NCBI RefSeq assembly: GCF_000829395.1
Contig: NZ_AP014680.1
Location: 744,001 to 808,000, forward strand
Length of the DNA: 64,000 nucleotides
Reading direction: 5' to 3'
Source: Paucilactobacillus hokkaidonensis JCM 18461
Lineage (GTDB): Bacteria > Bacillota > Bacilli > Lactobacillales > Lactobacillaceae
Each line of letters opens with the position of its first letter. Position 1 is the stretch's first letter. Positions 13,924-27,062 of this stretch are shown one piece after another. The position numbers were made by a program, and so were the translations under genes. The notes beneath the pieces were generated by a model. The model had not been told where the DNA came from, searched no databases, and saw nothing but the letters and a program-made list of their open reading frames with translations.

Positions 13924-13980
13924 AGTGAGTTATAACATGATAATTAAACTTCAATCTAAAATTACTGAAATAAAATAATG

Positions 13981-14043
13981 ACGTTAAAACAAAACTTTTA
14001 TACGTTTATAATCTAATCGTATTTCACTGCCGACTTGTAATAT
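13981..14043 (+). promoter_or_regulatory. LytTR-type bacteriocin promoter P1
   Basis: Direct repeats ACGTTAAAA (13981) and ACGTTTATA (14002) are spaced exactly 21 bp start to start, with a TAATAT -10 at 14038, 36 bp from the right repeat. This is the architecture of plantaricin-type promoters bound by PlnC/D-like regulators. The segment is homologous to P2 at 18198 well beyond the repeats. It drives the small membrane protein gene at 14147 rather than a bacteriocin. Confidence 0.8.
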
Positions 14044-14146
14044 GATATATAAAGTAAAAATAATTATAATCAAACGGACTGTTTTACAAACTGAAATGTC
14101 GGTTAATCCGCATGTTATAATAGTTATTGTCGGAGTGTGATTTATT

Positions 14147-14341
14147 GTGAATAATATATTAATAAATATGATTATCAGAGTGTTACTATCATTGGTGATG
14201 TTCACTGTTTCGTTTAGTTATGTTTACAGCTATAAAAACAAAAAATTTAGAGTTAATAGCTGGCGAAAAATAGGCGGTATTATTTTGATGGTTATTAGTA
14301 TTGCTTATTTGATATATTCATTTAAAGGTGTTTTATTTTAA
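14147..14341 (+). CDS. Small two-TM membrane protein, bacteriocin immunity candidate (paralog of 18695)
   Basis: A 64-aa protein with two hydrophobic helices (about 3-24 and 43-62) separated by a charged loop YKNKKFRVNSWRK. It is about 75% identical by eye to the product at 18695-18901, which directly follows a two-peptide bacteriocin pair. GTG start with GGAG upstream. It lies behind P1 but no bacteriocin gene intervenes, so it may be an orphan immunity gene left after loss of its partner peptides. Function is inferred from context only. Confidence 0.65.
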   Translation: MNNILINMIIRVLLSLVMFTVSFSYVYSYKNKKFRVNSWRKIGGIILMVISIAYLIYSFKGVLF

Positions 14342-14370
14342 TGTGTCATAGCTGATTAATAAATATAACT

Positions 14371-14407
14371 GTAATTCAATTAAGTTGAATTACGGTTCTA
14401 TTTTTGT
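14371..14407 (+). terminator. Terminator, duplicated at 18960
   Basis: GTAATTCAA and TTGAATTAC form a stem followed shortly by a T-run (CTATTTTTG). A near-copy follows the paralogous gene at 18695-18901, so the duplication spans promoter, gene and terminator. Confidence 0.65.
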
Positions 14408-14507
14408 ACGATTATATTGAATTGTTTGACGTTAAAAAATAAATGAGTAAAAGTGCTTAAAGGTTGTGCATAATGTTATTCGTACTGAATTTTATTAGGG
14501 GGATAAC

Positions 14508-15263
14508 ATGAAACATAAAAAATGGTTTTTATTAATTATTCTAGTAGCAATAATTGGAACTGCAATATTTGGTTTGAATAGCACTAATCATGCAAGTCAG
14601 TCGAAGAAAGATGCACATAAAACAAATACTTACATCGTTAAGGCGGCAAAAAGTAAGCTATATCGGGCAGAATATGTATCCGCCGAATATACCAGTTTAA
14701 CCAAGATTCCAAAAGAAAAGTTACTTGTTAATGATGGCGATCACGTAATTAAAGGGCAGAAAATATCCACTAGTTGGACTACCGCACCAATTAGCGGTGT
14801 TTTTTCTAATGATAAAGCCAGTGAAGATAGGATTTATAACTCACCAGGTTTGATTCAATTTAAGGTTTCGGAAAACGAACGGTCTAATTTTTCTCAAAAT
14901 AAATCAGTGACCATTGAATCATTAACCGATCAAAGATCAAAATTTCAGGGAACCATCAAGAGTATTTCTGCTCGGCCAGTGGCAGGTGGAGTGACGGCAC
15001 TATCTGAGTACAAAGTAACGGTCACGCCAGATGATCCAAACATGACCAACAGTATGTTTTTTGGAAAACATTTCAGTATTAAGGTTGGGGATGATGATTT
15101 AGCCATTCCTACAAAATATGTAACAAAATCAAATCAGGTAAACGAAAAACGATCAGGGTCTGGTTGGACTAAGGCTAATTTAAAGGTTGATTCAATTAGC
15201 AATGGATACTGCTATGTTAGTAAAAGCAGCATTCCTGTTGGAACGGAGCTGAAGCAACCATGA
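14508..15263 (+). CDS. MacA-like membrane-fusion/adaptor subunit of an ABC module
   Basis: A 251-aa protein with an N-terminal membrane anchor (about residues 5-24) and an extracytoplasmic domain with a lipoyl/beta-barrel-like layout (VNDGDHVIKGQKIS, then a short spacer to VTVTPDD). The GGGGGATAAC site precedes ATG 14508. It overlaps the ATPase gene by 4 bp and belongs to a three-gene MacA-ATPase-MacB-type set like Bacillus YknXYZ. Similar modules provide immunity or export for antimicrobial peptides; that role here is inferred from its place in a bacteriocin locus. Confidence 0.7.
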   Translation: MKHKKWFLLIILVAIIGTAIFGLNSTNHASQSKKDAHKTNTYIVKAAKSKLYRAEYVSAEYTSLTKIPKEKLLVNDGDHVIKGQKISTSWTTAPISGVFSNDKASEDRIYNSPGLIQFKVSENERSNFSQNKSVTIESLTDQRSKFQGTIKSISARPVAGGVTALSEYKVTVTPDDPNMTNSMFFGKHFSIKVGDDDLAIPTKYVTKSNQVNEKRSGSGWTKANLKVDSISNGYCYVSKSSIPVGTELKQP

Positions 15264-15949
15264 AAAATGCTAGTGTTGTAGTAACTGGATTAACCAAAAA
15301 ATTTGATGTGATGAAACAATCATTGACGGTATTAGAAAATCTCAATTTTGAAATTAAGCAAGGCGAGTTTGTTTCCATCGTTGGAGAATCCGGTTCTGGT
15401 AAATCAACGCTTTTAAATATTTTAGCGTTATTGGATAATTCATTTGAGGGTCAATATGAGCTAGCGGGTCTGGATATTACTAAATTAAAAGATCGCCAAT
15501 TATCGCTATTACGACGAGATAAGATTGGGTTCATATTTCAGGATTTTATGCTATTACCTAATTTAACGGTTGAACAAAATATATTATTGCAAATGGAGTA
15601 TTTAACACCAGTCCAACAAAATAAAGTGACAGTCGATTACGTTGAATTCCTACTGCAAAAAGTCGGCTTAATAGAGCGAATAAATTATTTGCCTGCACAA
15701 TTATCTGGTGGACAAAAGCAACGAGTTGCGATTGCACGGGCTTTATTAAACCAACCTGACATTATTGTTGCTGATGAGCCCACAGGGGCATTGGATTCCA
15801 AAACGTCGGTTCAAATTTTGGAGTTATTACAAAAGTTTAATGAATCTGGGCAAACAGTCATTGTGGTAACGCACAGTGAAAAGCTGGCCAAGCAAACCGA
15901 CAGACAACTATTAATTCATAACCGATCAATTGATGAGGTAACCAAATGA
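15260..15949 (+). CDS. ABC transporter ATPase (MacB/LolD type)
   Basis: A 229-aa ATP-binding subunit. Walker [10 protein letters not shown] is at residues 42-50, the signature LSGGQKQR near 150, Walker [10 protein letters not shown] just after, and a switch His in VVTHSE. The sequence [17 protein letters not shown] is typical of the LolD/MacB/YknY branch. It overlaps the adaptor gene upstream and the permease gene downstream by 4 bp each, so the three are translationally coupled and should act as one complex at the membrane. Confidence 0.9.
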
Positions 15950-17112
15950 AGTATTTTCTTAGAAATAGAATTAAAACATTGTTAGCTTTTCCAAAGCAAA
16001 ACGGTGCTGTCTTGATTTCAGTGATTGTTGCAATGATTAGTGTATTGGCCATTATTGCTACCGGCAATGGAATGGCCGATGGGATTGCTAATCAGTTGAA
16101 ACCGGCTAGCACTAAAAAGATTAGTTTTTTATACTCTAATAAAGACGGAAATAGTGGCAACTTAACTAGCGAAGATATTGCTTGTTTGAGATCAATGAAG
16201 GAAGTAAGAAAGGTCACGATATCAAGTGACACTGATAGTGCAAATCAGAATATAGATTTTAACAATTCACAACAACAAGCCACTGTGGGAAACATAAATC
16301 GATTCAATAATTTAAAAATGGTGGGTAGTCATAAAAAACTGACAGATAATAATTCTTCCAATGTCTGGATTAATCGAGGAGCTTCATGGATTCGGCCAAG
16401 TGAATATAAAGGTTTATTGGGTAAGAAGGTATTAATTGGAGATCAAGAATTTAATGTTGCTGGGGTGTATCAAACCTCGTTGTTAGATGGTGGTGATCTA
16501 CCTGATGTGATTTTACCAGCGACTACGTTTCATCAATTGGGGTTAAAAGTCCCCCACGATGAATTAGATATTCATTTTCAGCTAAATAAGGGAGAAAAAT
16601 TACCGACGTTAGAAGATAAGATACTGCATCGGTTGACTAACTTTAGTGCGGCTGGCGGTGCGGGAGATTTTTTGGTGTTAGATGACACAATGTTGTCCAG
16701 TTCAATGCATAAATTAGTAAAACATATTTCAACCTTTATTGTTTTCATTTCCAGCATGTCGCTTATTGTCTCTGGCTTAAGTATTTTAAATAATTCTTAT
16801 GCCAACATTGCAATGCGGTCGCCGGAGATTGCCTTAAGACGTGTTTTAGGTGCCAGTCAAAAAAAGATTCGGAATCAGTTTATTGCGGAATCGATTTTAT
16901 TGTTGCTGACAGGTGTGATTATCGGTGGAGTGGGGGCAAAACTGGTTGTTACCGTGTTAGCGATGTTTAAAGTAAAAGTTAGTTTAGATTTGTTTCAAAT
17001 TTGTATGGTTGGATTGGTACCACTGTGTATTGGTTTTATCGCCAGCGTTGGGCCAGCCAACATTGCGGGGAAGAAGAACATTACGACCTTATTGAGGACT
17101 GAGTACAGTTAA
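15946..17112 (+). CDS. ABC transporter permease, FtsX/MacB type
   Basis: A 388-aa permease with one N-terminal membrane segment (about 20-42), a large extracellular domain, and three C-terminal segments (about 255-275, 310-335, 345-370) in the MacB/FtsX arrangement. MRSPEIALRRVLGASQKKIRNQF is the usual coupling region of this family. It completes the adaptor-ATPase-permease module that starts at 14508. This architecture does not form a classic importer; it more likely senses or removes membrane-active peptides. Confidence 0.82.
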   Translation: MKYFLRNRIKTLLAFPKQNGAVLISVIVAMISVLAIIATGNGMADGIANQLKPASTKKISFLYSNKDGNSGNLTSEDIACLRSMKEVRKVTISSDTDSANQNIDFNNSQQQATVGNINRFNNLKMVGSHKKLTDNNSSNVWINRGASWIRPSEYKGLLGKKVLIGDQEFNVAGVYQTSLLDGGDLPDVILPATTFHQLGLKVPHDELDIHFQLNKGEKLPTLEDKILHRLTNFSAAGGAGDFLVLDDTMLSSSMHKLVKHISTFIVFISSMSLIVSGLSILNNSYANIAMRSPEIALRRVLGASQKKIRNQFIAESILLLLTGVIIGGVGAKLVVTVLAMFKVKVSLDLFQICMVGLVPLCIGFIASVGPANIAGKKNITTLLRTEYS

Positions 17113-17162: not shown

Positions 17163-17354
17163 ATGAAATTCAATAAATACTTTTTTAAAAATTCACTTTT
17201 TTGGTTGGGATTAGTGTTGATGGCATCTGTTTTATCATTAATTCCAGTTTTTCCAGCGCATTCAGTTTGTTTCACAACTTTATGGTGGATTAACGTTACC
17301 GAGCCAATTGTTGGATTGATATTGATTGTTACATCAGTATTAACCAAAAAATAG
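17163..17354 (+). CDS. Small two-TM protein, immunity-like (similar to 22640)
   Basis: A 63-aa membrane protein with GGGAGG eight bases before the ATG. The N-terminal pattern (KFNKYFFKNSLFWLGLVLM) is similar to the product at 22640-22831 (K-F-Y-K...FWFGLIFM), which follows the second bacteriocin pair. Both have two hydrophobic helices and basic ends. I regard it as a bacteriocin-associated immunity or accessory protein by context; no characterised family was recognised. Confidence 0.6.
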   Translation: MKFNKYFFKNSLFWLGLVLMASVLSLIPVFPAHSVCFTTLWWINVTEPIVGLILIVTSVLTKK

Positions 17355-17463: not shown

Positions 17464-18165
17464 ATGGCGTTACGTAAAAAATATCTGTTTTTGATACCAT
17501 TGTTTTTTTATATATTATCAAATCGATTTAGAATTATTCCCTCTTTGGGATTTTCTGAAATAACAAGTATTGCCGTATTGGTGGTGTTTGGGTTGCTTGC
17601 GTTGTATTTAATTTGGACGACGTTGGTTAATGATTTTAAAACTTTAACCTGGGCGTCAATCTGGTATTTTCCCAGTATGCTGTTAGTCCAATTAGTAGTT
17701 AGATATCTGATTATATTTATTTTAATACTAGCAACTGATAAAATACCGGCCAACATCATTCAAAATAGTACCAATCAAAGTAGTCTGCAAAATTTTGGTG
17801 CAAGTATTGCAGGACAGGTGCTGCCAAATATGCTTGTTTTTATATGGGCCGCAATCATTGCACCGCTGATGGAAAATTTATTTTTTATTTATGTAATTCA
17901 AGGGATTGTATTAAAAAAACTAATTCGATCAGTTAAGTATGGTGCATTAATCAGAATAGTGATTGTTGCAATATTGTTCTGCCTGTGGCATGTGCAATCG
18001 GTTAGTGATCTTAATAACCCATTCTTTTATCAGTATCTATCATTGGGCTGGCTAGCGTATATTTATGAACAAACTGGTAATTTTGTTAAAACTTGGATTG
18101 CGCATATGGGGATGAACATGATTCCGATGGTGGCTGAATTGTTGATAAGCGGGGTTATCTTTTAA
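17464..18165 (+). CDS. CPBP-family membrane protein (Abi/immunity type) with altered first motif
   Basis: A 233-aa protein with six to seven hydrophobic helices, matching CPBP (CAAX protease and bacteriocin-processing) proteins that are common in lactobacillus bacteriocin loci as self-immunity factors. Motif 2 (FCLWH) and motif 3 (HMGMN, an HxxxN pattern) are intact. Motif 1, normally EExxxR, reads ENLFFIY here: the second Glu is Asn and the Arg is missing, so protease activity is doubtful. A GGGAGATTTAATTCAAA leader precedes ATG 17464. Confidence 0.78.
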   Translation: MALRKKYLFLIPLFFYILSNRFRIIPSLGFSEITSIAVLVVFGLLALYLIWTTLVNDFKTLTWASIWYFPSMLLVQLVVRYLIIFILILATDKIPANIIQNSTNQSSLQNFGASIAGQVLPNMLVFIWAAIIAPLMENLFFIYVIQGIVLKKLIRSVKYGALIRIVIVAILFCLWHVQSVSDLNNPFFYQYLSLGWLAYIYEQTGNFVKTWIAHMGMNMIPMVAELLISGVIF

Positions 18166-18197
18166 AGTATGTAATTCGGCCAAAAGCTAAAATAATA

Positions 18198-18260
18198 ACG
18201 TTAAAATAGAATCTTTAGACGTTTATAAATTAATCGAATTTTATTACCGATTTGTAATAG
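18198..18260 (+). promoter_or_regulatory. LytTR-type bacteriocin promoter P2
   Basis: ACGTTAAAA (18198) and ACGTTTATA (18219) spaced 21 bp, with a TAATAG -10 at 18255, 36 bp from the right repeat. It precedes the first two-peptide bacteriocin operon and closely resembles P1 in the flanking bases too. Confidence 0.85.
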
Positions 18261-18340
18261 AATCCTATGTATAAAGTAATAATATTTGTCGGCAAATTAA
18301 TTATTTTATAGTTTATATTTTAAATGGAAGGTGTTATGGA

Positions 18341-18496
18341 ATGGACAGTTTAAGTAGTTTTACTCTTATGAATAAAAATGAACTTGAAAAAATTAATGGT
18401 GGAAAAATTATATGGGTTGCGATAGCCGAGGAAGCATATAGGCATTCGGATCAAATTATAAAAGGGTTTAGGAAAGCTCAAAAAAAATATCGATAA
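18341..18496 (+). CDS. Double-glycine bacteriocin precursor, pair 1 peptide A
   Basis: A 51-aa prepeptide not marked by usual gene length. The 21-residue leader MDSLSSFTLMNKNELEKINGG has the hydrophobic spacing and GG cleavage site of class II bacteriocins; the mature 30-residue peptide (KIIWVAIAEEAY... ending RKAQKKYR) is cationic and amphipathic. GGAAGG sits 7 nt before ATG 18341. It lies 14 bp ahead of a second GG-leader peptide, so the two probably form a class IIb two-peptide bacteriocin, processed and exported by the C39 transporter at 23093. Expression should be driven by P2. Confidence 0.82.
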   Translation: MDSLSSFTLMNKNELEKINGGKIIWVAIAEEAYRHSDQIIKGFRKAQKKYR

Positions 18497-18510
18497 GGAG
18501 AATACTTGAC

Positions 18511-18693
18511 ATGAGTAAAAATGAATTAAATAAATTTGTAACATTGAGTCCTGAAAGCTTAAAAGATATTAGTGGTGGTTCATCAAATAAGTTTTGGCAA
18601 GGCGTAGGTTATGCTGCTGGATTCTTGACTAGCGTATCAATGCGTCGAGCAATTCGAAAGGGTTCGGCATCACGTTATAGTCGATATTACTAA
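18511..18693 (+). CDS. Double-glycine bacteriocin precursor, pair 1 peptide B (PlnK-like)
   Basis: A 60-aa prepeptide with a 23-residue leader ending KDISGG and a 37-residue mature peptide. The mature part has a GxxxG helix-packing motif (GYAAG in QGVGYAAGF) and a basic C-terminus (MRRAIRKGSASRYSRYY), resembling plantaricin K by pattern. AAGGAG precedes ATG 18511. Together with the peptide encoded just upstream it forms a likely two-component pore former; an immunity candidate follows one base after its stop. Confidence 0.85.
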   Translation: MSKNELNKFVTLSPESLKDISGGSSNKFWQGVGYAAGFLTSVSMRRAIRKGSASRYSRYY

Positions 18694-18694
18694 A

Positions 18695-18901
18695 ATGAGA
18701 TTTGCTATGAATACTATAATAATAAACATGGTTATTAGAGTTGTGCTGTCATTATTGATGTGCACAGTCTCGTTCAGTTACGTTTACAGTTATCAGAACA
18801 AAAAATTTAAAGTTGATAGTTGGCGCAAAACAGGTGGCATTATTCTGACATTAATTAGTATTGTTTATTTGGTGTATTCTGTTAAAGGTGTGTTATTTTA
18901 A
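18695..18901 (+). CDS. Small two-TM membrane protein, cognate immunity candidate for pair 1
   Basis: Encoded one base after the stop of bacteriocin peptide B, so translationally coupled. The ATG at 18695 gives 68 aa; by comparison with the paralog at 14147 the start may be ATG 18707 (64 aa). Two hydrophobic helices flank the loop YQNKKFKVDSWRK. Position directly after a two-peptide pair is where class IIb immunity genes usually lie. Function is inferred from this context; no named family recognised. Confidence 0.72.
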   Translation: MRFAMNTIIINMVIRVVLSLLMCTVSFSYVYSYQNKKFKVDSWRKTGGIILTLISIVYLVYSVKGVLF

Positions 18902-18959
18902 GACACGAATGTTGTGGATTAACAGTAATAACTGGTTATCGTAATCATTAAATGGGGTT

Positions 18960-18993
18960 GTAATTCAATTAAACTGAATTACAGTCCTATTTT
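18960..18993 (+). terminator. Terminator of bacteriocin operon 1
   Basis: GTAATTCA...TGAATTAC stem followed by CCTATTTTATT; a near-copy of the terminator at 14371. An inverted degenerate copy of the same stretch appears near 21460-21487. Confidence 0.6.
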
Positions 18994-19061: not shown

Positions 19062-19127
19062 ACGTTAATCATTCAGAACGGTACGTTTATTTATTTTTTA
19101 TTAAGTATAAAATTTTATTGATATAAT
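19062..19127 (+). promoter_or_regulatory. LytTR-type promoter P3 of the regulatory operon
   Basis: ACGTTAATC (19062) and ACGTTTATT (19083) are spaced 21 bp, with TATAAT at 19122, 39 bp from the right repeat. It precedes the pheromone-kinase-regulator operon, giving the positive autoregulation expected of a three-component quorum-sensing system. Confidence 0.85.
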
Positions 19128-19164: not shown

Positions 19165-19287
19165 ATGAAGTTTAAGAAATTGTCTGAAAAAGAATTGCAA
19201 AAAATAAATGGTGGGGTAACTTTATCTGTTGCGACGCATTCAAAAAATGGATTAAAGAAGTTCTTTAAATGGGTTCGGAAATTATAA
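19165..19287 (+). CDS. Inducing-peptide pheromone precursor (PlnA-like)
   Basis: A 40-aa prepeptide starting at ATG 19165 behind AAAGGAGGA. The 17-residue leader MKFKKLSEKELQKINGG carries a GG cleavage site, and the 23-residue mature peptide is amphipathic and basic, with the C-terminal pattern GLKKFFKWVRKL recalling plantaricin A. It lies directly upstream of the histidine kinase and response regulator genes, the usual location of the secreted induction factor. The C39 exporter should process and secrete it. Confidence 0.85.
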   Translation: MKFKKLSEKELQKINGGVTLSVATHSKNGLKKFFKWVRKL

Positions 19288-19308: not shown

Positions 19309-20652
19309 TTGATATATATTGGATTTTTAGCTGAACTGCTTTTAAATATAAGTCAACTTTTTATGGTGCTTATATTGTATAGATTCATAGTTGGAAAATA
19401 TAAAGTGCACTATTTAATTGAAGATATATTAATATCGTTGCTGTTCGGAATTGTGGGATTAGTACTGGATGATAGTTATTTGATACTATTTCTTTTTATG
19501 TTTTTAATCAAAGAGGCTGTTGAAAATCACTCTCTGAAATTTAATTTAGAAAAAGCAATTACTATGGTTAGTGTATTAATAGTACAAGAGTTTATATATT
19601 TTTGTGCAATGTATGTTAGTAGATTAATAGTTTCGTTTGTATTTAAGCCTGTCAATTTAAATGAACTCGGGAATCATGATGTTGTTTTAGTATTAACGAC
19701 TAATGTTATTGACATAATAACTAGTTTCATATTAATTCATTTAATTAATGATCAAAAAAATAAAATTGATGAGCTTTTTTATAAAATCGAGAATTTTAAT
19801 GTCAGAAAACAAATATTTATTTTGATTCTGGCATTGTTTTTGTCTTATCAATTTATTTTTGGTATAAGTAATTTTCAAAAGGTGACAGCAAAAATACAAT
19901 TAAGTATCATTTTGACATTTACGTTATTTACTGCTTTGGTGATTTATCAAGTTATTTTATTTTTAAAAACGTATACAATGCGTCAAGAGAACATAGATGA
20001 AAAAAAGAGGAATGCACAGTTAAATGAGTATTTAATAAGCGTTGAGCAACAATACGATGAATTGAGAAAGTTTAAACATGATTATAAAAATATGTTGCTT
20101 TCACTTGGATCACTTGTAGAAAATGACAATAAAGATCAATTTAAAAATTACTATCAAGATTTAGTTAATCAAGACATTGTCAGTACCGAGCTAAAGGGCG
20201 GACTTATTGCCCAGACTGACAAAATCATGAATGACCCTTTACGAGGATTAATAATTCAAAAATATTTTAGTGCTCAAAATAAAAGTATTCAATTGGAATT
20301 AGAAGTTTCCGATGATCAATTTAAAATTGATCATGATAGAATACCAATTATTAGGATTATTGGTATTCTGTTGGATAACGCAATCGAATATACAGTTGAT
20401 ACAGATAATAAACAAATAACATGTGCTTTCGTTAAAACCCAAAATACTATTGAAATTTCTGTTGAGAATATAGTTGACGAAGGTTTTGGTTTGTCTAGAA
20501 TGAATGAATTTGGATATACAACTAAAGGGACCAATCATGGCAATGGTTTAACCAACATTAGAAACATAATTCAACAACATGACAATCTATTTTTTGAAAA
20601 AAGTCTAAATAAAAATAAACTTGTTATGACGTTATTGATTACGGAGGAATAA
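19309..20652 (+). CDS. HPK10-family sensor histidine kinase (PlnB/AgrC-like)
   Basis: A 447-aa membrane kinase. The N-terminal half (about 1-220) has six to seven hydrophobic helices for pheromone sensing; the phospho-acceptor is H257 in FKHDYKNMLLSLGS; the ATP-binding region includes DNAIEY and HGNGLTNIRNII near the C-terminus. This lacks a classic DxGxG box, as is usual in the HPK10 group. The start is a TTG at 19309 with GGTGAT upstream, only 21 bp after the pheromone gene. It should phosphorylate the LytTR regulator encoded 3 bp downstream. Confidence 0.88.
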   Translation: MIYIGFLAELLLNISQLFMVLILYRFIVGKYKVHYLIEDILISLLFGIVGLVLDDSYLILFLFMFLIKEAVENHSLKFNLEKAITMVSVLIVQEFIYFCAMYVSRLIVSFVFKPVNLNELGNHDVVLVLTTNVIDIITSFILIHLINDQKNKIDELFYKIENFNVRKQIFILILALFLSYQFIFGISNFQKVTAKIQLSIILTFTLFTALVIYQVILFLKTYTMRQENIDEKKRNAQLNEYLISVEQQYDELRKFKHDYKNMLLSLGSLVENDNKDQFKNYYQDLVNQDIVSTELKGGLIAQTDKIMNDPLRGLIIQKYFSAQNKSIQLELEVSDDQFKIDHDRIPIIRIIGILLDNAIEYTVDTDNKQITCAFVKTQNTIEISVENIVDEGFGLSRMNEFGYTTKGTNHGNGLTNIRNIIQQHDNLFFEKSLNKNKLVMTLLITEE

Positions 20653-20655
20653 AAA

Positions 20656-21393
20656 TTGTTACCAGTATTTTTACTTGAGGATGATAAGCAGCAATTAGCT
20701 ACATATCAGCAAATTATTAATAACGCAATTATGATCAATGAATTTGCCATGAAATTAATTGTGGCAAGTGATAATGTGGCCGATTTTGAACGGCAGTTAA
20801 CAATAACTAAACAAGGTGTTTTCTTTTTGGATATGGAAATTAGTGATGATAAACAGGCCGGGCTCAAAGTAGCTGAAAGAATAAAAGCACAGGTACCGTT
20901 TGCACAAATTGCATTTATTACAACGCATGAAGAACTATCCTTTTTAACACTTAAAAGGAAAATTGCTCCATTTGATTATATTTTAAAAGATGAAGGAATT
21001 GAATCAATAAAACAACATTTAAGAGCAGATGTAGACTTGGCTTATGAAAATTATGAAAAAACTATTTATCATCATAAAAGTTTATTTGGTTATAAAATTG
21101 GTGACCGCTATTTTTCATTGCCAATGTCAGAGTTAATGGTGCTATATACTGATAAGACTAAACCGGGTGACATAAATTTAGTTGCCGATAACGTGGAAGC
21201 TAGTTTTCCAGGCAATTTAAATCATATAGAACAACAGCATCCAAATTTATTTAGGTGTGATAAAAGCTACTTAGTTAATCTGGACAACTTAGAGTCCTAT
21301 GACGCACACAGGAGAGTTTTGAAATTTAAAAATAATGTTGAGTGTAAGGTTTCATTTCGAAAAGCTCGAGAATTAAAGAAGTTATTAAAGTGA
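20656..21393 (+). CDS. LytTR response regulator (PlnC/D-like)
   Basis: A 245-aa regulator with a receiver domain (about 1-125; acidic pocket ED at residues 8-9 and D59 in FFLDMEIS as phospho-acceptor) and a C-terminal LytTR DNA-binding domain (about 140-240; FRCDKSYLVNLDNLE). TTG start with GGAGG that overlaps the end of the kinase gene. LytTR proteins of this group bind paired 9-bp repeats phased by two helical turns, which matches the five promoters found in this region. Only one regulator is present here, unlike the plnC/plnD pair. Confidence 0.9.
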   Translation: MLPVFLLEDDKQQLATYQQIINNAIMINEFAMKLIVASDNVADFERQLTITKQGVFFLDMEISDDKQAGLKVAERIKAQVPFAQIAFITTHEELSFLTLKRKIAPFDYILKDEGIESIKQHLRADVDLAYENYEKTIYHHKSLFGYKIGDRYFSLPMSELMVLYTDKTKPGDINLVADNVEASFPGNLNHIEQQHPNLFRCDKSYLVNLDNLESYDAHRRVLKFKNNVECKVSFRKARELKKLLK

Positions 21394-22013: not shown

Positions 22014-22079
22014 ACGATAATCCTTGATTTTTGAACGATAATAAATAGATCAATACAAATTAAAAAAACGTGGTATTCT
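22014..22079 (+). promoter_or_regulatory. LytTR-type promoter P5, variant repeats
   Basis: ACGATAATC (22014) and ACGATAATA (22035) are spaced 21 bp, with TATTCT at 22074, 39 bp from the right repeat. The core differs from the other promoters (ACGATAAT instead of ACGTTAAT/ACGTTTAT) but is identical in both halves, so it may bind the regulator with different affinity. It precedes bacteriocin operon 2. Confidence 0.7.
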
Positions 22080-22202: not shown

Positions 22203-22370
22203 ATGAAAAGTACATTTAAAAGTTTAGATGCATATAAAAATGTTAATTGTAAAGATGCAATTAATATTTATGGGGGGATTAGTCCATATGGAGTTGCTGC
22301 TAAGGTGATCTATTCTGGTGTTAAGCATTATAAGTCTATTTTAAAGGGAATCTCAATGGGGTACAAATAG
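22203..22370 (+). CDS. Double-glycine bacteriocin precursor, pair 2 peptide A
   Basis: A 55-aa prepeptide; ATG 22203 with GGAG nine bases upstream (an in-frame TTG at 22188 overlaps that site and is unlikely). The leader is unusual: it ends INIYGG at residue 25, with a Cys at position 16. The mature peptide (30 residues, beginning ISPYGVAAKVIYSG) has a GxxxG near its end (GISMG) and basic residues. It is followed after 20 bp by another GG-leader peptide, fitting a class IIb pair. Transcription from P5 is likely. Confidence 0.78.
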   Translation: MKSTFKSLDAYKNVNCKDAINIYGGISPYGVAAKVIYSGVKHYKSILKGISMGYK

Positions 22371-22390
22371 GTTAAACGGAGGTGACAATC

Positions 22391-22567
22391 ATGAAATCAA
22401 TGAATTTTGTTCAAGTTTCAAAATATTTCAGAGAATTTAACGATGATGAGAAAAATTTGATTCAAGGGGGATCGTTTGTTGGTGAATTATGGAAGGGATA
22501 CGGAGTTGGCGTTTCAAAAAGTATGAAGTTTGCATGGAAATCAGGTTATAATACGAATCCACATTAA
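22391..22567 (+). CDS. Double-glycine bacteriocin precursor, pair 2 peptide B
   Basis: A 58-aa prepeptide with GGAGGTGA before ATG 22391. The leader is 27 residues long, ending NLIQGG; the mature 31-residue peptide begins SFVGELWKG and holds a GxxxG motif (GYGVG) in a Trp/Lys-rich amphipathic stretch. With peptide A it should form a two-peptide bacteriocin. An immunity-like small membrane gene follows at 22640. Confidence 0.82.
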   Translation: MKSMNFVQVSKYFREFNDDEKNLIQGGSFVGELWKGYGVGVSKSMKFAWKSGYNTNPH

Positions 22568-22639
22568 ATCTGTTTAAGAGTGTGCATAGATATTAGATGT
22601 ACGCCTTTTTAAGTTTACGAGTATAGAGAGGTGAATATT

Positions 22640-22831
22640 ATGAGAATAAAACTAAATAAAAAATTTTACAAGACTTTAAACTTTTGGTTTGGTCTAATAT
22701 TTATGTCAGGATTCATTGATTTATTTAGTCATAGCTTCAGTATACTGTGGTTTATTGGACTAGTTATATGTTTTTATGGAGTCTATATGTTTATTAGATC
22801 CTTTATTGATTTTAATGGGAATACAAAGTAA
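22640..22831 (+). CDS. Small two-TM protein, cognate immunity candidate for pair 2
   Basis: A 63-aa protein (ATG 22640 with AGAGGTG upstream; the GTG at 22631 overlaps that site). Two hydrophobic helices, basic N-terminus MRIKLNKKFYKTL, similar in layout to the product of 17163-17354. Its place directly after the second bacteriocin pair supports an immunity role. Not assigned to a named family. Confidence 0.65.
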   Translation: MRIKLNKKFYKTLNFWFGLIFMSGFIDLFSHSFSILWFIGLVICFYGVYMFIRSFIDFNGNTK

Positions 22832-22957
22832 ATTACTGCAATAGTTTTGAAATAATTTTATTCCATGAGCCTTTAGTGCTAGTCATATATTTCAGATTTA
22901 TTTGGATATATGGTATAAAAATTATCCGATTGTTTTTTGAAAAAAATAACTAAAATT

Positions 22958-23039
22958 GGTGTACTTAATATTAACGTTTATCTAAAGAAAATTAACGTTA
23001 ATATTAAGTACACCCATTTTTTTAAAGATGCTTTAATAT
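22958..23039 (+). promoter_or_regulatory. LytTR-type promoter P4 embedded in a perfect 21-bp inverted repeat
   Basis: ACGTTTATC (22974) and ACGTTAATA (22995) are phased by 21 bp, with a TAATAT -10 at 23034, 39 bp from the right repeat. Uniquely, the whole site sits in a perfect inverted repeat: 21-bp arms at 22958-22978 and 22994-23014 with a 15-nt loop, followed by seven T residues, so the RNA form would be a strong terminator-like hairpin for transcripts coming from operon 2. It precedes the exporter operon. Confidence 0.82.
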
Positions 23040-23092: not shown

Positions 23093-25270
23093 ATGACTTT
23101 TATTTGGAATAAAATAAAATTTAAGTACGTGCCTCAAGTCGATGAACGAGATTGTGGTGTTGCAGCTTTAGATATGGTACTAGAGGCATATCATTCAGAT
23201 TATTCATTAGCGTCTTTAAGAGAATTAGCAAAAACGGATATGGAAGGAACCACAGCTTTAGGAATTGTAAGGGCAGCTGAGCAAATTGGATTTGAAACTC
23301 AAGTGGTCAAGGCTGATATGTCATTATTTGATTTGGATGATATTCCGTATCCGTTCATTGCTCATGTTATTAAACCGGGCGGTCTCCTTCATTACTACAC
23401 TATTTTTTCAAAGACCAGTAAGTGTGTTATTTTGGGTGATCCAGATCCTTCAGTTGGTCTGATCAGAATGAGCAAAAAGCAGTTTCAAGGTGAATGGGAT
23501 GGGGTTGCCATCTTTTTAGCACCTTTGCCTGAATATCATCCTAAAAAGGAATCCAAAAGAAATTTATTTGCTTTGATTCCATTATTATTGAAACAGCGAT
23601 TGTTAGTAACTCAAATAATTTTGGCATCATTATTGGTTACACTAATCAGTATCGTGGGTTCATATTATCTGCAGGGTATCATTGATACATATATTCCTGG
23701 TGGACTTAAAAATACATTAGTAATTATATCTATTGGCATTATTACGGCGTACGTTATACAGCAGTTTTTATCATTTGCAGAAAACTATCTATTAATGGTG
23801 ATGGGACAAAGATTATCCATTGATATAATTTTAGGGTATATCCGTCACATCTTTGAATTGCCAATGAAATTCTTTGGAACCAGAAGAACTGGGGAAATTG
23901 TTTCTAGATTTACAGATGCTAGCCAAATCATTGATGCTTTAGCAAGCACAATTATTTCTTTATTTTTAGATGTTGGAATTGTTGTTATAGTAGGAATTGT
24001 GTTGGCGTTTCAGAATATTAATTTGATGCTCTTAACATTAATTTCAATACCACTGTATGCCATCATTATTTTTGTGTTTGTCGGTAGTTTTGACAAATTA
24101 AATAATGATCGGATGGAATCAAATGCCGTTTTGAGTTCATCAATCATTGAGGATATAGACGGAATAGAAACGATTAAATCTTTAAATAGCGAGCAGACCA
24201 CCTACCGAAAAATTGATCGTGAGTTTGTGGATTATTTGAAAAAATCATTTAAATATGAAAAATTAAGTATCACACAAGAAGCACTCAAAGAAGGATTACA
24301 GTTGGTACTCAATGTATTTGTACTCTGGTTTGGTTCAACCATGGTTATTGATGGAAAAATGACTTTAGGTCAGCTGGTTACTTTCAATGCGTTATTAAGT
24401 TATTTCACAACTCCGCTTCAGTCAATAATCGGATTACAAACTAAATTGCAAGCGGCCAAGGTGGCTAACAATCGACTCAACGAAGTTTATTCAGTAGATT
24501 CTGAATTTACTAAAGTTTCCGCGTTTAATGAAAAACCTAAGTCATTGACAAATTCGGAAATTACACTAACAAATGTTAAATTCAGGTATGGTTTTGGCAA
24601 TTATGCGTTAGATGATATTTCACTTACTATTAAAGCGGGTGCCAAAATTGCTCTTGTAGGTGCTAGTGGTTCTGGTAAATCTACTTTGGTGAAATTATTA
24701 GTTAGATTTTTTGAATCTGAGTCCGGCCAAATAAGATTTGGGCAGATACCATTAAATGAAATTAACCAAAAGAAATTGAGAGCAACCATAAATTATTTGC
24801 CCCAAGAACCATATATATTTTCTGGAACGATTTATGAAAATTTATTACTTGGTTGCAGTGATAAAAATGTAGGAATCCAAACAATTAATAACGCGTTAGA
24901 AATTGCGGCAATCAAAGATGATATCGAAGCAATGCAGTTGGGCTTGGAAACGCCACTCTCAGCGGACGGCAGTGGTATCTCAGGTGGGCAAAAGCAGCGT
25001 ATTGCAATTGCTAGAGCAGTTTTAGCTGATACACCGGTTATGATTATGGATGAATCTACAAGTAATTTAGATTTAATTACGGAACGTAAAATAATTGGAA
25101 ATTTATTAGCTTTCACGAATAAAACAATTATTTTTGTCGCTCATCGTTTAACCATTGCAGAAATGGTTGATGATATTTACGTAATGAACCACGGTAAAGT
25201 TATTGAACATGGTTCACATGAAAAATTGCGTAATGCAGGTGGCTTTTATTCGAAACTATTAAATGATTGA
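23093..25270 (+). CDS. Bacteriocin ABC exporter with C39 leader peptidase (PlnG/ComA-like)
   Basis: A 725-aa peptidase-containing ABC transporter. The N-terminal C39 domain has Cys21 in DERDCGVAAL, His100 in LLHYYTI and Asp116 in GDPDPS, the residues that cut GG leaders. Six membrane helices (about 160-430) follow, then the ATPase with Walker A GASGSGKST, signature SGGQKQR and Walker B VMIMDEST. It should trim and export the pheromone and all four bacteriocin peptides encoded nearby. AGGAGAAG precedes ATG 23093; the partner gene begins 6 bp after its stop. Confidence 0.93.
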   Translation: MTFIWNKIKFKYVPQVDERDCGVAALDMVLEAYHSDYSLASLRELAKTDMEGTTALGIVRAAEQIGFETQVVKADMSLFDLDDIPYPFIAHVIKPGGLLHYYTIFSKTSKCVILGDPDPSVGLIRMSKKQFQGEWDGVAIFLAPLPEYHPKKESKRNLFALIPLLLKQRLLVTQIILASLLVTLISIVGSYYLQGIIDTYIPGGLKNTLVIISIGIITAYVIQQFLSFAENYLLMVMGQRLSIDIILGYIRHIFELPMKFFGTRRTGEIVSRFTDASQIIDALASTIISLFLDVGIVVIVGIVLAFQNINLMLLTLISIPLYAIIIFVFVGSFDKLNNDRMESNAVLSSSIIEDIDGIETIKSLNSEQTTYRKIDREFVDYLKKSFKYEKLSITQEALKEGLQLVLNVFVLWFGSTMVIDGKMTLGQLVTFNALLSYFTTPLQSIIGLQTKLQAAKVANNRLNEVYSVDSEFTKVSAFNEKPKSLTNSEITLTNVKFRYGFGNYALDDISLTIKAGAKIALVGASGSGKSTLVKLLVRFFESESGQIRFGQIPLNEINQKKLRATINYLPQEPYIFSGTIYENLLLGCSDKNVGIQTINNALEIAAIKDDIEAMQLGLETPLSADGSGISGGQKQRIAIARAVLADTPVMIMDESTSNLDLITERKIIGNLLAFTNKTIIFVAHRLTIAEMVDDIYVMNHGKVIEHGSHEKLRNAGGFYSKLLND

Positions 25271-25276
25271 GGGATT

Positions 25277-26656
25277 ATGATGGATACCAAATACTTAGAA
25301 AGCAGCGAATTTTATGATAAAAGGTTTCGAAACTTTGCAACACTGGTAATCATTCCTGCATTTGTATTGTTACTATTAACAATTTTATTTGGTGTTTTTG
25401 CAAAAAAAGAAATTGTTACCAAGGCAACCGGTCAGATTATTGCAAACAAGCCGCTAGCAACGATTCAGTCAACCAGTTCAAATCGAGTGGATTTAACTGC
25501 TGTCACAGAAGGAAAGTTTGTTAGAAAGGGTAATAAATTAATTACATTTGCGAACACGAAAGAGCAAACGCAAATTAAATTGTTAACCTTAGAAAAAGAT
25601 AACCTGAATAGCAAGATTGATGCCATTACTTTATTGCAGACAGGTATTAATGAAAATAAAAATACTTTTTCGTCTGCAGATAATTTTGGTATGTCTAATA
25701 TTCTATTTAATTATTTAAGCCAAAATAAGGTTTCTCAGGCAAATAGTAATATTAATAATAAATCTGCCAGTGACCAACAAACATCCTATGAGGGGCAAAA
25801 AGATGAATTAAATACGTTGATAAAACAATATGGAAATAAAATTAGTGACTATAAATCAGTAATTAGTGCAGTTAATAATGGAAGTGGTCTCAGTAGTTCT
25901 AATTCACAAAAAAATTTGTTAACTAATTATCAGGCTCAAGCAAAACAAATGTCTAATCAAGAATTAAAATCTTTGCAGGTACAGACAACTTCTGATTTAA
26001 AATCACAAGTTGATCAGCTGCAAGAAACACTTGATGGCTACACACTGCAAGAAAAGGCTTTGTCAACACCAAGTGATCCCGGTGAGGTACAGATTATTAA
26101 CGTCGAAAAAACCGATGAAATCAAGCAAAATGCGCTTACTTCGGCCGCAAGTGATTTGTCAGATGCAAAGGAACAGTTGGCCGAAGTAACTGCCAAGTTA
26201 GATCTCTTTCAAGCTGATAATAGCGATAATACGATTTACGCTCCGGCTACTGGAGTTATTCACAGTTTAGTATCCAATGAACGCGTGCGTTACTATCCTA
26301 AAGGATCTGAGATAGCCGCGATATATCCAAGAATAAGTAAGCAAAAAAAGATTGCAGTTGAGTGCTTTGTCCAATCTTCAAAAATTGTTAATCTAAAAAA
26401 GGGTCAGCAAGTAAGGTTTAAATTGACTAATAAAAACCCGAAATCGCTAACTTTAAATGGGAAAATCAGTAAAATTGATAGCGCAGCAACACAGACCAAA
26501 GCAGGAAATTTCTTTAGAGTGAAAGCTGAACTTAACTTACCACGAGATCAGCGCCTGAACTTGCATTATGGGATTCAGGGACAAATTATGTTAGTTACGG
26601 ATCATAAGACTTATTTTAATTACTACAAAGATCTTATAACTTCGGGTGATAATTAA
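25277..26656 (+). CDS. Bacteriocin export accessory protein (HlyD/PlnH/ComB-like)
   Basis: A 459-aa membrane-fusion-type protein with one N-terminal transmembrane helix (about 22-44), a long coiled-coil-rich middle (about 90-310), and a C-terminal beta-rich domain starting YAPATGVIHSLV. This is the standard partner of C39 exporters in class II bacteriocin secretion. The gene follows the exporter by 6 bp, in one operon from P4. Start ATG 25277 (or the adjacent ATG 25280). Confidence 0.88.
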   Translation: MMDTKYLESSEFYDKRFRNFATLVIIPAFVLLLLTILFGVFAKKEIVTKATGQIIANKPLATIQSTSSNRVDLTAVTEGKFVRKGNKLITFANTKEQTQIKLLTLEKDNLNSKIDAITLLQTGINENKNTFSSADNFGMSNILFNYLSQNKVSQANSNINNKSASDQQTSYEGQKDELNTLIKQYGNKISDYKSVISAVNNGSGLSSSNSQKNLLTNYQAQAKQMSNQELKSLQVQTTSDLKSQVDQLQETLDGYTLQEKALSTPSDPGEVQIINVEKTDEIKQNALTSAASDLSDAKEQLAEVTAKLDLFQADNSDNTIYAPATGVIHSLVSNERVRYYPKGSEIAAIYPRISKQKKIAVECFVQSSKIVNLKKGQQVRFKLTNKNPKSLTLNGKISKIDSAATQTKAGNFFRVKAELNLPRDQRLNLHYGIQGQIMLVTDHKTYFNYYKDLITSGDN

Positions 26657-26711: not shown

Positions 26712-27062
26712 ATGATAACAAGAATTATGTGTACACCAGTTGACGTGACCGGTTCTCATAAGTCAATTACAGGTAGTCTTTTATTAGATGCATTCTTTGG
26801 CGGGCGGTTTGAAGCCAAACTTTCAAATCTGCTTTGGAAAATGAAAATTGAAATATTGATTGATCATTGTAATTATGAAGACTTAGAAGCAAATGATACT
26901 CATCTGTATGTGATTAATGATAATGTAATGGATAATTTAAGAGCTGACCATGATTTGTTGTTTGAAAATTTAGTAACATTTTCAAACGAAGAGATGATGA
27001 GTGAAGATGGGATAAAAAATATCAGTACTCGGATTGGGGAAATATTGCGAAATAGAACATAA
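26712..27062 (+). CDS. Hypothetical protein at the end of the exporter operon
   Basis: A 116-aa soluble protein that I do not recognise. The N-terminal part contains TGSHKSITGSLLLDAFFGGRFEAKLSNLLWKMK, and the rest is acidic with no membrane helix. The initiation region (TAGGGCGTGG before ATG 26712) is only moderate. Same strand and 55 bp after the HlyD-like gene, so probably co-transcribed from P4; an accessory or regulatory role in bacteriocin production is possible but unsupported. Confidence 0.5.
   Translation: MITRIMCTPVDVTGSHKSITGSLLLDAFFGGRFEAKLSNLLWKMKIEILIDHCNYEDLEANDTHLYVINDNVMDNLRADHDLLFENLVTFSNEEMMSEDGIKNISTRIGEILRNRT

What the first reader, a model, noticed from the sequence alone, without database searches (positions are those of the whole stretch)
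18341..18901. Apparently uncharacterised two-peptide bacteriocin 1 with cognate immunity gene
Two consecutive GG-leader peptides (51 and 60 aa precursors), the second with a GxxxG motif in GYAAG and a basic tail, followed one base later by a small two-TM protein. The first is too short for many gene callers. I do not recognise the mature sequences as any named bacteriocin.
Basis: partly seen in the sequence, partly recalled or inferred. Interest (0 to 1): 0.75.

Follow-up and report, generated by a model that had tools for sequence, protein, structure and literature searches.

The report
Two-peptide bacteriocin operon, silage Lactobacillus
A silage lactic acid bacterium carries an apparently undescribed pair of small antibacterial peptides with a likely self-protection gene, a new member of a known kind that sits in a cell-density-controlled cluster with a second such pair and spare self-protection genes.

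Summary
18341-18496 and 18511-18693 encode 51- and 60-aa double-glycine-leader peptides, followed by a small two-TM protein (longest ORF 18695-18901; likely start 18707). The genome matches Lactobacillus hokkaidonensis LOOC260T. Profiles built from mature relatives pick peptide 1 (E 1.3e-8) and peptide 2 (E 8.1e-7) out of 1683 reading frames as beta and alpha partners of one known two-peptide type, that of acidocin X / enterocin X. Homologous pairs lie close together in Lactiplantibacillus, Fructobacillus, Leuconostoc, Enterococcus, and on Lactococcus and Staphylococcus plasmids. The operon has a plantaricin-like regulator site (two ACGTTWA repeats 21 bp apart) shared with other operons of a full cluster: inducing peptide, histidine kinase, LytTR regulator, second peptide pair, C39 exporter, accessory protein. 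Extra: 4 kb upstream is a copy of this operon that kept regulator site and immunity gene but lost both peptides; dN/dS between the immunity genes is 0.13. I read it as an inducible class IIb bacteriocin that permeabilises competitors; activity, target and immunity are inferred. In the papers searched I found only the inducing peptide, listed as a potential bacteriocin (PMC5471241). New member of a known kind.

The parts
18198..18226 (+). regulator site of the operon: two direct repeats ACGTTAA/ACGTTTAT, 21-bp period
   Evidence: plantaricin consensus TACGTTAAT with 12-bp spacer in PMC2714321 passages
18341..18496 (+). peptide 1 precursor (51 aa), beta-type; mature KIIWVAIAEEAYRHSDQIIKGFRKAQKKYR
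   Evidence: beta profile E 1.3e-8, next frame 0.48
18511..18693 (+). peptide 2 precursor (60 aa), alpha-type with GxxxG; mature SSNKFWQGVGYAAGFLTSVSMRRAIRKGSASRYSRYY
   Evidence: alpha profile E 8.1e-7, next frame 0.3
18707..18901 (+). putative immunity protein imm1, 64 aa, two TM segments (longest ORF starts 18695)
18950..18992 (+). terminator-like hairpin closing the operon
   Evidence: 7 such sites in the stretch scanned, 3.4 expected
19062..19090 (+). regulator site before the inducer operon
19165..19287 (+). putative inducing peptide, mature VTLSVATHSKNGLKKFFKWVRKL
   Evidence: same letters as the L. hokkaidonensis DSM 26202 entry in Table 7 of PMC5471241
19309..20652 (+). histidine kinase, GHKL type
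   Evidence: PF14501 E 1e-11
20656..21393 (+). LytTR response regulator
   Evidence: PF04397 E 7.6e-18
22014..22042 (+). variant regulator site (ACGATAAT twice, 21-bp period) before the second pair
   Evidence: 3 mismatches, so weak
22203..22370 (+). second pair, beta-like peptide
22391..22567 (+). second pair, alpha-like peptide
22640..22831 (+). putative immunity protein imm2 (63 aa)
22974..23002 (+). palindromic double regulator site inside a 30-nt inverted repeat (22952-23020) before the exporter
23093..25270 (+). C39 peptidase-ABC exporter for GG-leader peptides
   Evidence: TIGR01193 1059 bits; PF03412 E 1.2e-37
25277..26656 (+). bacteriocin secretion accessory protein
   Evidence: TIGR01000 417.8 bits
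13981..14009 (+). regulator site of the peptide-less operon copy
14147..14341 (+). imm1 paralogue in an operon copy without peptides
   Evidence: 80% DNA identity over 206 bases; dN/dS 0.133
15260..17112 (+). ABC ATPase and MacB-like permease between the two extra immunity-like genes
17163..17354 (+). small membrane protein similar to imm2
   Evidence: score 87, 0 of 1000 shuffles reach it
17464..18165 (+). CAAX-protease (Rce1-like) protein, a kind also present in the plantaricin locus
   Evidence: PF02517 E 6.8e-12; PMC2714321 passage

Best explanation
18198-18992 is a quorum-induced class IIb (two-peptide) bacteriocin operon of the acidocin X / enterocin X type. The inducer at 19165 is exported and sensed by the kinase at 19309; the LytTR regulator at 20656 binds the paired repeats and switches on this operon, the exporter and probably the second bacteriocin. 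The C39 exporter removes both leaders after GG and secretes peptide 1 (beta) and peptide 2 (alpha). They pair as helices, probably through GYAAG of peptide 2 and GFRKA of peptide 1, and permeabilise related Gram-positive cells; imm1 protects the producer. Shown by sequence: leaders, partner homology, operon, regulator sites, exporter. Inferred: induction, export, helix pairing, killing, target, immunity.
For: Profiles from mature relatives: peptide 1 is the one strong beta hit (E 1.3e-8) and peptide 2 the one strong alpha hit (E 8.1e-7) among 1683 window frames. Pairwise: peptide 1 is reached by 0 of 5000 shuffles against 8 of 10 betas and at best by 61 of 5000 against 10 alphas; peptide 2 by 0 to 11 of 5000 against 6 of 10 alphas and at best by 303 of 5000 against 10 betas. 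8 of 10 loci examined that peptide 2 found (L005-L014) hold a beta-type gene nearby, and 3 of 3 further loci reached through beta peptides (L047-L049) hold an alpha-type ORF just upstream. Regulator pattern: 6 matches in 2.4 Mb, 5 of them in this cluster (4 sites); reversed-pattern control 3. Exporter, accessory protein, kinase and regulator identified.
Against: No expression, mass or activity data. Neither peptide reaches a curated cut-off except TIGR01847, a leader model, for peptide 1 (16.5 against 15.7 bits); the mature parts alone match no NCBIfam model. imm1 does not resemble small membrane ORFs near 5 related pairs (lowest 48 of 1000 shuffles). No match at E 0.01 in the 6 other genus members held, one of them 76% complete. 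Peptide 2 is not significant against 4 of 10 alphas (50, 266, 462 and 801 of 5000), and finds nothing in the plasmid collection at E 0.1. The promoter-like scan shows no excess (47 found, 54.4 expected).
Confidence: 0.88

Rival explanations
1. The peptides act as single-peptide bacteriocins with separate spectra rather than as an obligate pair.
For: A review passage describes the components of enterocin X as tested alone, with mixing changing potency unevenly, 0.13-130-fold or 1.0-1020-fold (PMC4155820).
Against: Alpha- and beta-type genes lie close together in 11 related loci, and here one immunity gene follows the two.
Confidence: 0.15
2. One or both small peptides are signalling pheromones rather than antimicrobials.
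For: Short cationic GG peptides; weak ComC hits to the leaders (19.7 bits against a cut-off of 20.4 for peptide 2).
Against: The inducer role is already filled by the 40-aa peptide directly before the kinase; the mature parts match two-peptide bacteriocins; a small membrane protein follows.
Confidence: 0.04
3. 18707-18901 is not the immunity protein; protection comes from the CAAX-protease protein at 17464 or the MacB-like exporter.
For: imm1 matches no immunity family and has one plausible distant relative, a 65-aa ORF (E 5.3e-4, not the best-scoring hit) in a stretch where my filter found no GG peptide.
Against: Same operon, right size, two TM segments, and the peptide-less copy kept this gene under constraint.
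Confidence: 0.15
4. Decayed or silent remnant.
For: One operon copy nearby has lost its peptides.
Against: The operon's own parts are intact, with ribosome sites, regulator site and terminator-like hairpin.
Confidence: 0.06

Closest known systems
Acidocin X (L. acidophilus DSM 20079) and its relative enterocin X (E. faecium KU-B5)
   Same: beta: HSDQIIKGF and basic tail (12 of 24 identical to acidocin X beta, 0 of 5000 shuffles); alpha starts alike (9 of 15 identical with a gap, 4 of 5000). Acidocin X letters from PMC5471241; enterocin X letters were not compared
   Different: peptide 1 is shorter (30 aa) with GFRKA for GFKRG; no cysteine in peptide 2; beta gene precedes alpha, whereas alpha comes first in 9 of 11 related loci read
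Unnamed pair on Lactococcus plasmids (e.g. pUCCL635A, L048)
   Same: best alpha match to peptide 2 (14 of 33 identical, 0 of 5000 shuffles) and HSDQIIKG in beta
   Different: plasmid-borne, alpha first, alpha leader looks truncated
Lactococcin G / enterocin 1071
   Same: peptide 1 aligns to mature lactococcin G beta (0 of 5000 shuffles)
   Different: below NCBIfam cut-offs (21.7 and 15.7 against 37); peptide 2 only weakly like lactococcin G alpha (102 of 5000), less than several other alphas; a 4-residue gap in the HSDQ segment
Plantaricin (pln) locus of L. plantarum C11
   Same: two two-peptide operons, an inducer-kinase-regulator operon, GG-peptide exporter, CAAX-protease genes, paired 9-bp repeats with 12-bp spacer (PMC2714321 passages)
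   Different: one regulator gene instead of PlnC and PlnD; different peptides; extra immunity-like genes beside a MacB-like transporter

Membership tests
class IIb two-peptide bacteriocin | two adjacent GG-leader precursors in one operon with a small membrane protein gene | tested here: met
class IIb two-peptide bacteriocin | helix-contact motif GxxxG or variant in each mature peptide | tested here: met
   GYAAG in peptide 2; only the GxxxA variant GFRKA in peptide 1 (sequence)
class IIb two-peptide bacteriocin | both peptides together needed for full activity | not testable with these tools
   needs synthetic peptides
acidocin X / enterocin X type | mature beta and alpha homologous to the type pair, partner-specific | tested here: met
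   with acidocin X letters from PMC5471241; enterocin X itself not compared
lactococcin G / enterocin 1071 (NF038034, NF038035) | curated score cut-off | tested here: not met
   21.7 and 15.7 bits against 37; mature parts alone give no hit
lactobin A / cerein 7B (TIGR03949) | curated score cut-off | tested here: not met
   18.9 against 21.5 bits for peptide 1
Bacteriocin_IIc (PF10439) | curated score cut-off | tested here: not met
   18.7 (peptide 1) and 13.2 (peptide 2) against 27.1 bits
plantaricin-type three-component regulon | inducer + HK + LytTR RR, and paired repeats of 21-bp period before the operons | tested here: met
   the site before the second pair is a weak variant (22014)
plantaricin-type three-component regulon | regulator binds these sites and the inducer activates | not testable with these tools
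   needs gel shift or reporter

The most novel reading that the evidence does not exclude
The cluster carries a second, peptide-free immunity layer: an inducible copy of the first operon that kept regulator site and immunity gene but lost its peptides, plus an imm2-like gene, flanking a MacB-like transporter. It would guard against the cell's own two bacteriocins or against kin variants. In addition, peptide 1 may bridge the acidocin X and lactococcin G beta families and so hint at a shared type of receptor.
Probability: 0.25. Interest if true: 0.45.

Novelty: new member of a known kind. Interest (0 to 1): 0.3.

Why it matters
It adds an apparently undescribed two-peptide bacteriocin in a cold-tolerant silage bacterium that its sequencers expect to be useful as a starter culture (abstract of PMC4377027). 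It also questions the reading of a peptide printed as a potential bacteriocin that is more likely the inducer, so that adding this synthetic peptide may switch production on. The peptide-less operon copy is a testable case of immunity kept after loss of the peptides.

Tried and rejected
Chance ORFs: rejected. Lactococcin G family membership: rejected on cut-offs, though peptide 1 alone resembles mature lactococcin G beta. Naming imm1 by homology led nowhere: the single-protein search gave 66 of 397 genomes at E 0.1, largely pieces of long frames, and a 3-row profile found the 3 sequences it was built from and 8 partial matches (E 1.7e-5 to 1e-3), 7 of them inside frames of 246 to 505 aa. A conserved copy of the cluster in the genus: among 6 other genomes the matches that I followed were two to the regulator/kinase genes (L056, L057); the first stretch showed no GG peptide by my filter and the second only two unconvincing ORFs. 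Solved-structure searches with both peptides: nothing relevant. Plasmid search with peptide 2: no match at E 0.1. Genome-collection search with peptide 1 alone: 141 pattern matches, no confirmed relative. Strand folding and structure prediction were not run.

Full report
WHERE IT IS. The window is positions 744001-808000 of contig 1 of a 2,400,586-bp, 3-contig genome; contig 1 has 2,277,985 bp. These figures equal the chromosome of Lactobacillus hokkaidonensis LOOC260T, 2,277,985 bp, plus plasmids of 81,630 and 40,971 bp (PMC4377027, passages); the newer genus name Paucilactobacillus is recalled. That paper contains the word bacteriocin 0 times. The inducer peptide has the same letters as an entry for L. 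hokkaidonensis DSM 26202 in PMC5471241 (passages); that this is the same type strain is recalled.

THE OBSERVATION. A filter for a GG leader with hydrophobic positions plus a ribosome site finds 3 ORFs in the window: the two peptides and the inducer. Sixty first-order Markov shuffles gave a mean of 0.08, at most 2, and no tandem pair. The filter is strict and misses the second pair at 22203-22567. The immunity ORF probably starts at 18707: the paralogue at 14147 aligns over 64 residues without gaps from there.

FAMILY. Peptide 2 searched in 397 genomes of the family gave 57 genomes at E <= 1, most with weak scores; the better hits align over the leader and the first part of the mature peptide. 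Of the ten loci L005-L014 (E 1.6e-5 to 0.017), eight hold a GG-leader gene with H(S/T/A)D(Q/E)(I/L) nearby; L012 holds a plantaricin J-like peptide (label recalled) and L013 has neither. One search returned 4 named loci: Lactiplantibacillus plantarum EGD-AQ4, Fructobacillus sp. EFB-N1, Leuconostoc inhae DSM 15101 and Enterococcus ureilyticus LMG 26676. The first three have the contig lengths of L007, L005 and L010, whose peptides were in the query alignment, so they give names and not new hits; the Enterococcus locus is new. In Leuconostoc inhae a 72-aa ORF lies between beta and alpha. The plasmid search with peptide 1 gave 39 records at E <= 10 (33 Lactococcus, 5 Staphylococcus, 1 Enterococcus), with E 0.2-2 in the 20 listed, so weak alone; I opened two and both hold a candidate alpha ORF just upstream of the beta. 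PMC5471241 lists acidocin X beta with HSDQIIKGF and calls it 53% identical to enterocin X beta.

CONTROLS. Mature peptide 1: 0 of 5000 shuffles against 8 of 10 betas, 2 against the L. apodemi beta, 237 against the window's second beta; against 10 alphas the best was 61. Mature peptide 2 against 10 alphas: acidocin X 4, Lactococcus 0, L. plantarum 2, Fructobacillus 2, Leuconostoc 2, E. ureilyticus 11, L. apodemi 50, S. epidermidis 266, the window's second alpha 462, L. rhamnosus 801; against 10 betas the best was 303 (all of 5000). Profiles from 10 mature betas and 10 mature alphas, none from the window, rank peptide 1 and peptide 2 first among 1683 window frames (E 1.3e-8, next 0.48; E 8.1e-7, next 0.3). 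The window's second pair is not picked up (alpha E 0.73, beta E 48). So each peptide of the named pair belongs to one partner type, and the two types are found close together elsewhere.

ORDER AND MOTIFS. In 11 related loci with order read, alpha comes first in 9 (L005/L045, L006, L007/L044, L008, L009, L014, L047, L048, L049) and beta first in 2 (L010/L046, L011; in L011 the alpha is known from the hit only). The window has beta first in both its pairs. The GxxxG of peptide 2 (GYAAG) has counterparts at the same place in several relatives (GMGLG, GLGLG, GYVVG, GVGLG, GNVAG), not in the L. plantarum or Fructobacillus alphas; several betas have GxxxG after HSDQIxx where peptide 1 has GFRKA (by eye).

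REGULATION AND EXPORT. ACGTTWA-N14-ACGTTWA occurs 6 times in the genome: at window 13981, 18198 and 19062, twice in the palindromic site near 22974, and once elsewhere; the reversed-pattern control gave 3. A looser search in the window (up to 3 mismatches) gave 14 matches against 7.64 expected, so only the near-perfect ones mean much. A variant, ACGATAAT twice at the same 21-bp period, lies before the second pair (22014). In plantaricin loci the sites are two 9-bp repeats, consensus TACGTTAAT, with a 12-bp spacer (PMC2714321, passages): the same period. The kinase (GHKL), regulator (LytTR), C39 exporter and accessory protein are clear. A terminator-like hairpin follows the operon at 18950-18992 and another the 14147 gene at 14367-14397; such sites are 7 in the stretch against 3.4 expected, and promoter-like sites show no excess (47 against 54.4).

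THE PEPTIDE-LESS COPY. 13930-14420 aligns to 18140-18980: regulator site and promoter region match, then some 350 bases holding nearly all of both peptide genes are missing, and the immunity gene matches again (80% DNA identity over 206 bases). Between the two immunity genes dS is 0.90 and dN 0.12 (ratio 0.133; Fisher p 1.7e-7; Nei-Gojobori on one pair, 63 codons), so the protein was conserved over much of the divergence. 17163-17354 resembles imm2 (0 of 1000 shuffles). These two extra genes flank an ABC ATPase and MacB-like permease. I infer retained immunity; function is untested.

MECHANISM. Shown: genes, leaders, family, regulator sites, exporter. Inferred from established class IIb biology (recalled): GG cleavage during export, helix pairing, membrane permeabilisation through a receptor unknown here, immunity by imm1. 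Peptide 1 resembles mature lactococcin G beta (0 of 5000), more than the 10 other betas tested (best 183 of 2000). Peptide 2 is only weakly like lactococcin G alpha (102 of 5000), and several other alphas are more like it (1, 5, 16 and 29 of 2000). This hints at, but does not show, a common receptor type.

NOVELTY. Five fragments (one of peptide 1, two of peptide 2, one each of the second beta and the inducer) were searched in the held papers: only the inducer was found, in PMC5471241, where Table 7 lists it among potential class IId structural proteins. I read it as the inducer because it directly precedes the kinase. The species name occurs once in that main text, so its class IIb table does not name it; its supplement could not be opened. 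Fifteen held papers contain both hokkaidonensis and bacteriocin; I looked at passages of PMC5471241, PMC12417486 and PMC4972977, which do not describe this pair, and saw the other twelve only in the listing. Hence: new member of a known kind, interest modest.

Noticed in passing
window 22203-22831: A second two-peptide operon with immunity-like gene; its peptides resemble the pair printed for L. apodemi (0 and 3 of 5000 shuffles), which I recall as plantaricin NC8-like.
   Followed up: partly
window 13930-14420: Copy of the first bacteriocin operon without its peptides; immunity gene kept under constraint.
   Followed up: yes
window 22952-23020: 30-nt inverted repeat, 93% complementary, holding two regulator repeats in palindromic arrangement just before the exporter; may serve as operator or terminator.
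   Followed up: partly
L048:988-1353 (Lactococcus plasmid pUCCL635A): Two-peptide pair before a C39 exporter; the alpha ORF is not annotated in the table and its leader looks truncated. 33 Lactococcus plasmid records match the beta.
   Followed up: partly
L049:985-1356 (S. epidermidis plasmid pC066MK2): Tandem 'hypothetical protein' genes beside a C39-type transporter look like a two-peptide bacteriocin of the same family.
   Followed up: partly
window 26712-27062: 116-aa protein after the secretion accessory gene with no Pfam match at E 0.01.
   Followed up: no
L057:3560-6051: Kinase/regulator pair in another genus member with paired ACGTTAA repeats upstream; no convincing GG peptide seen by my filter.
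   Followed up: no
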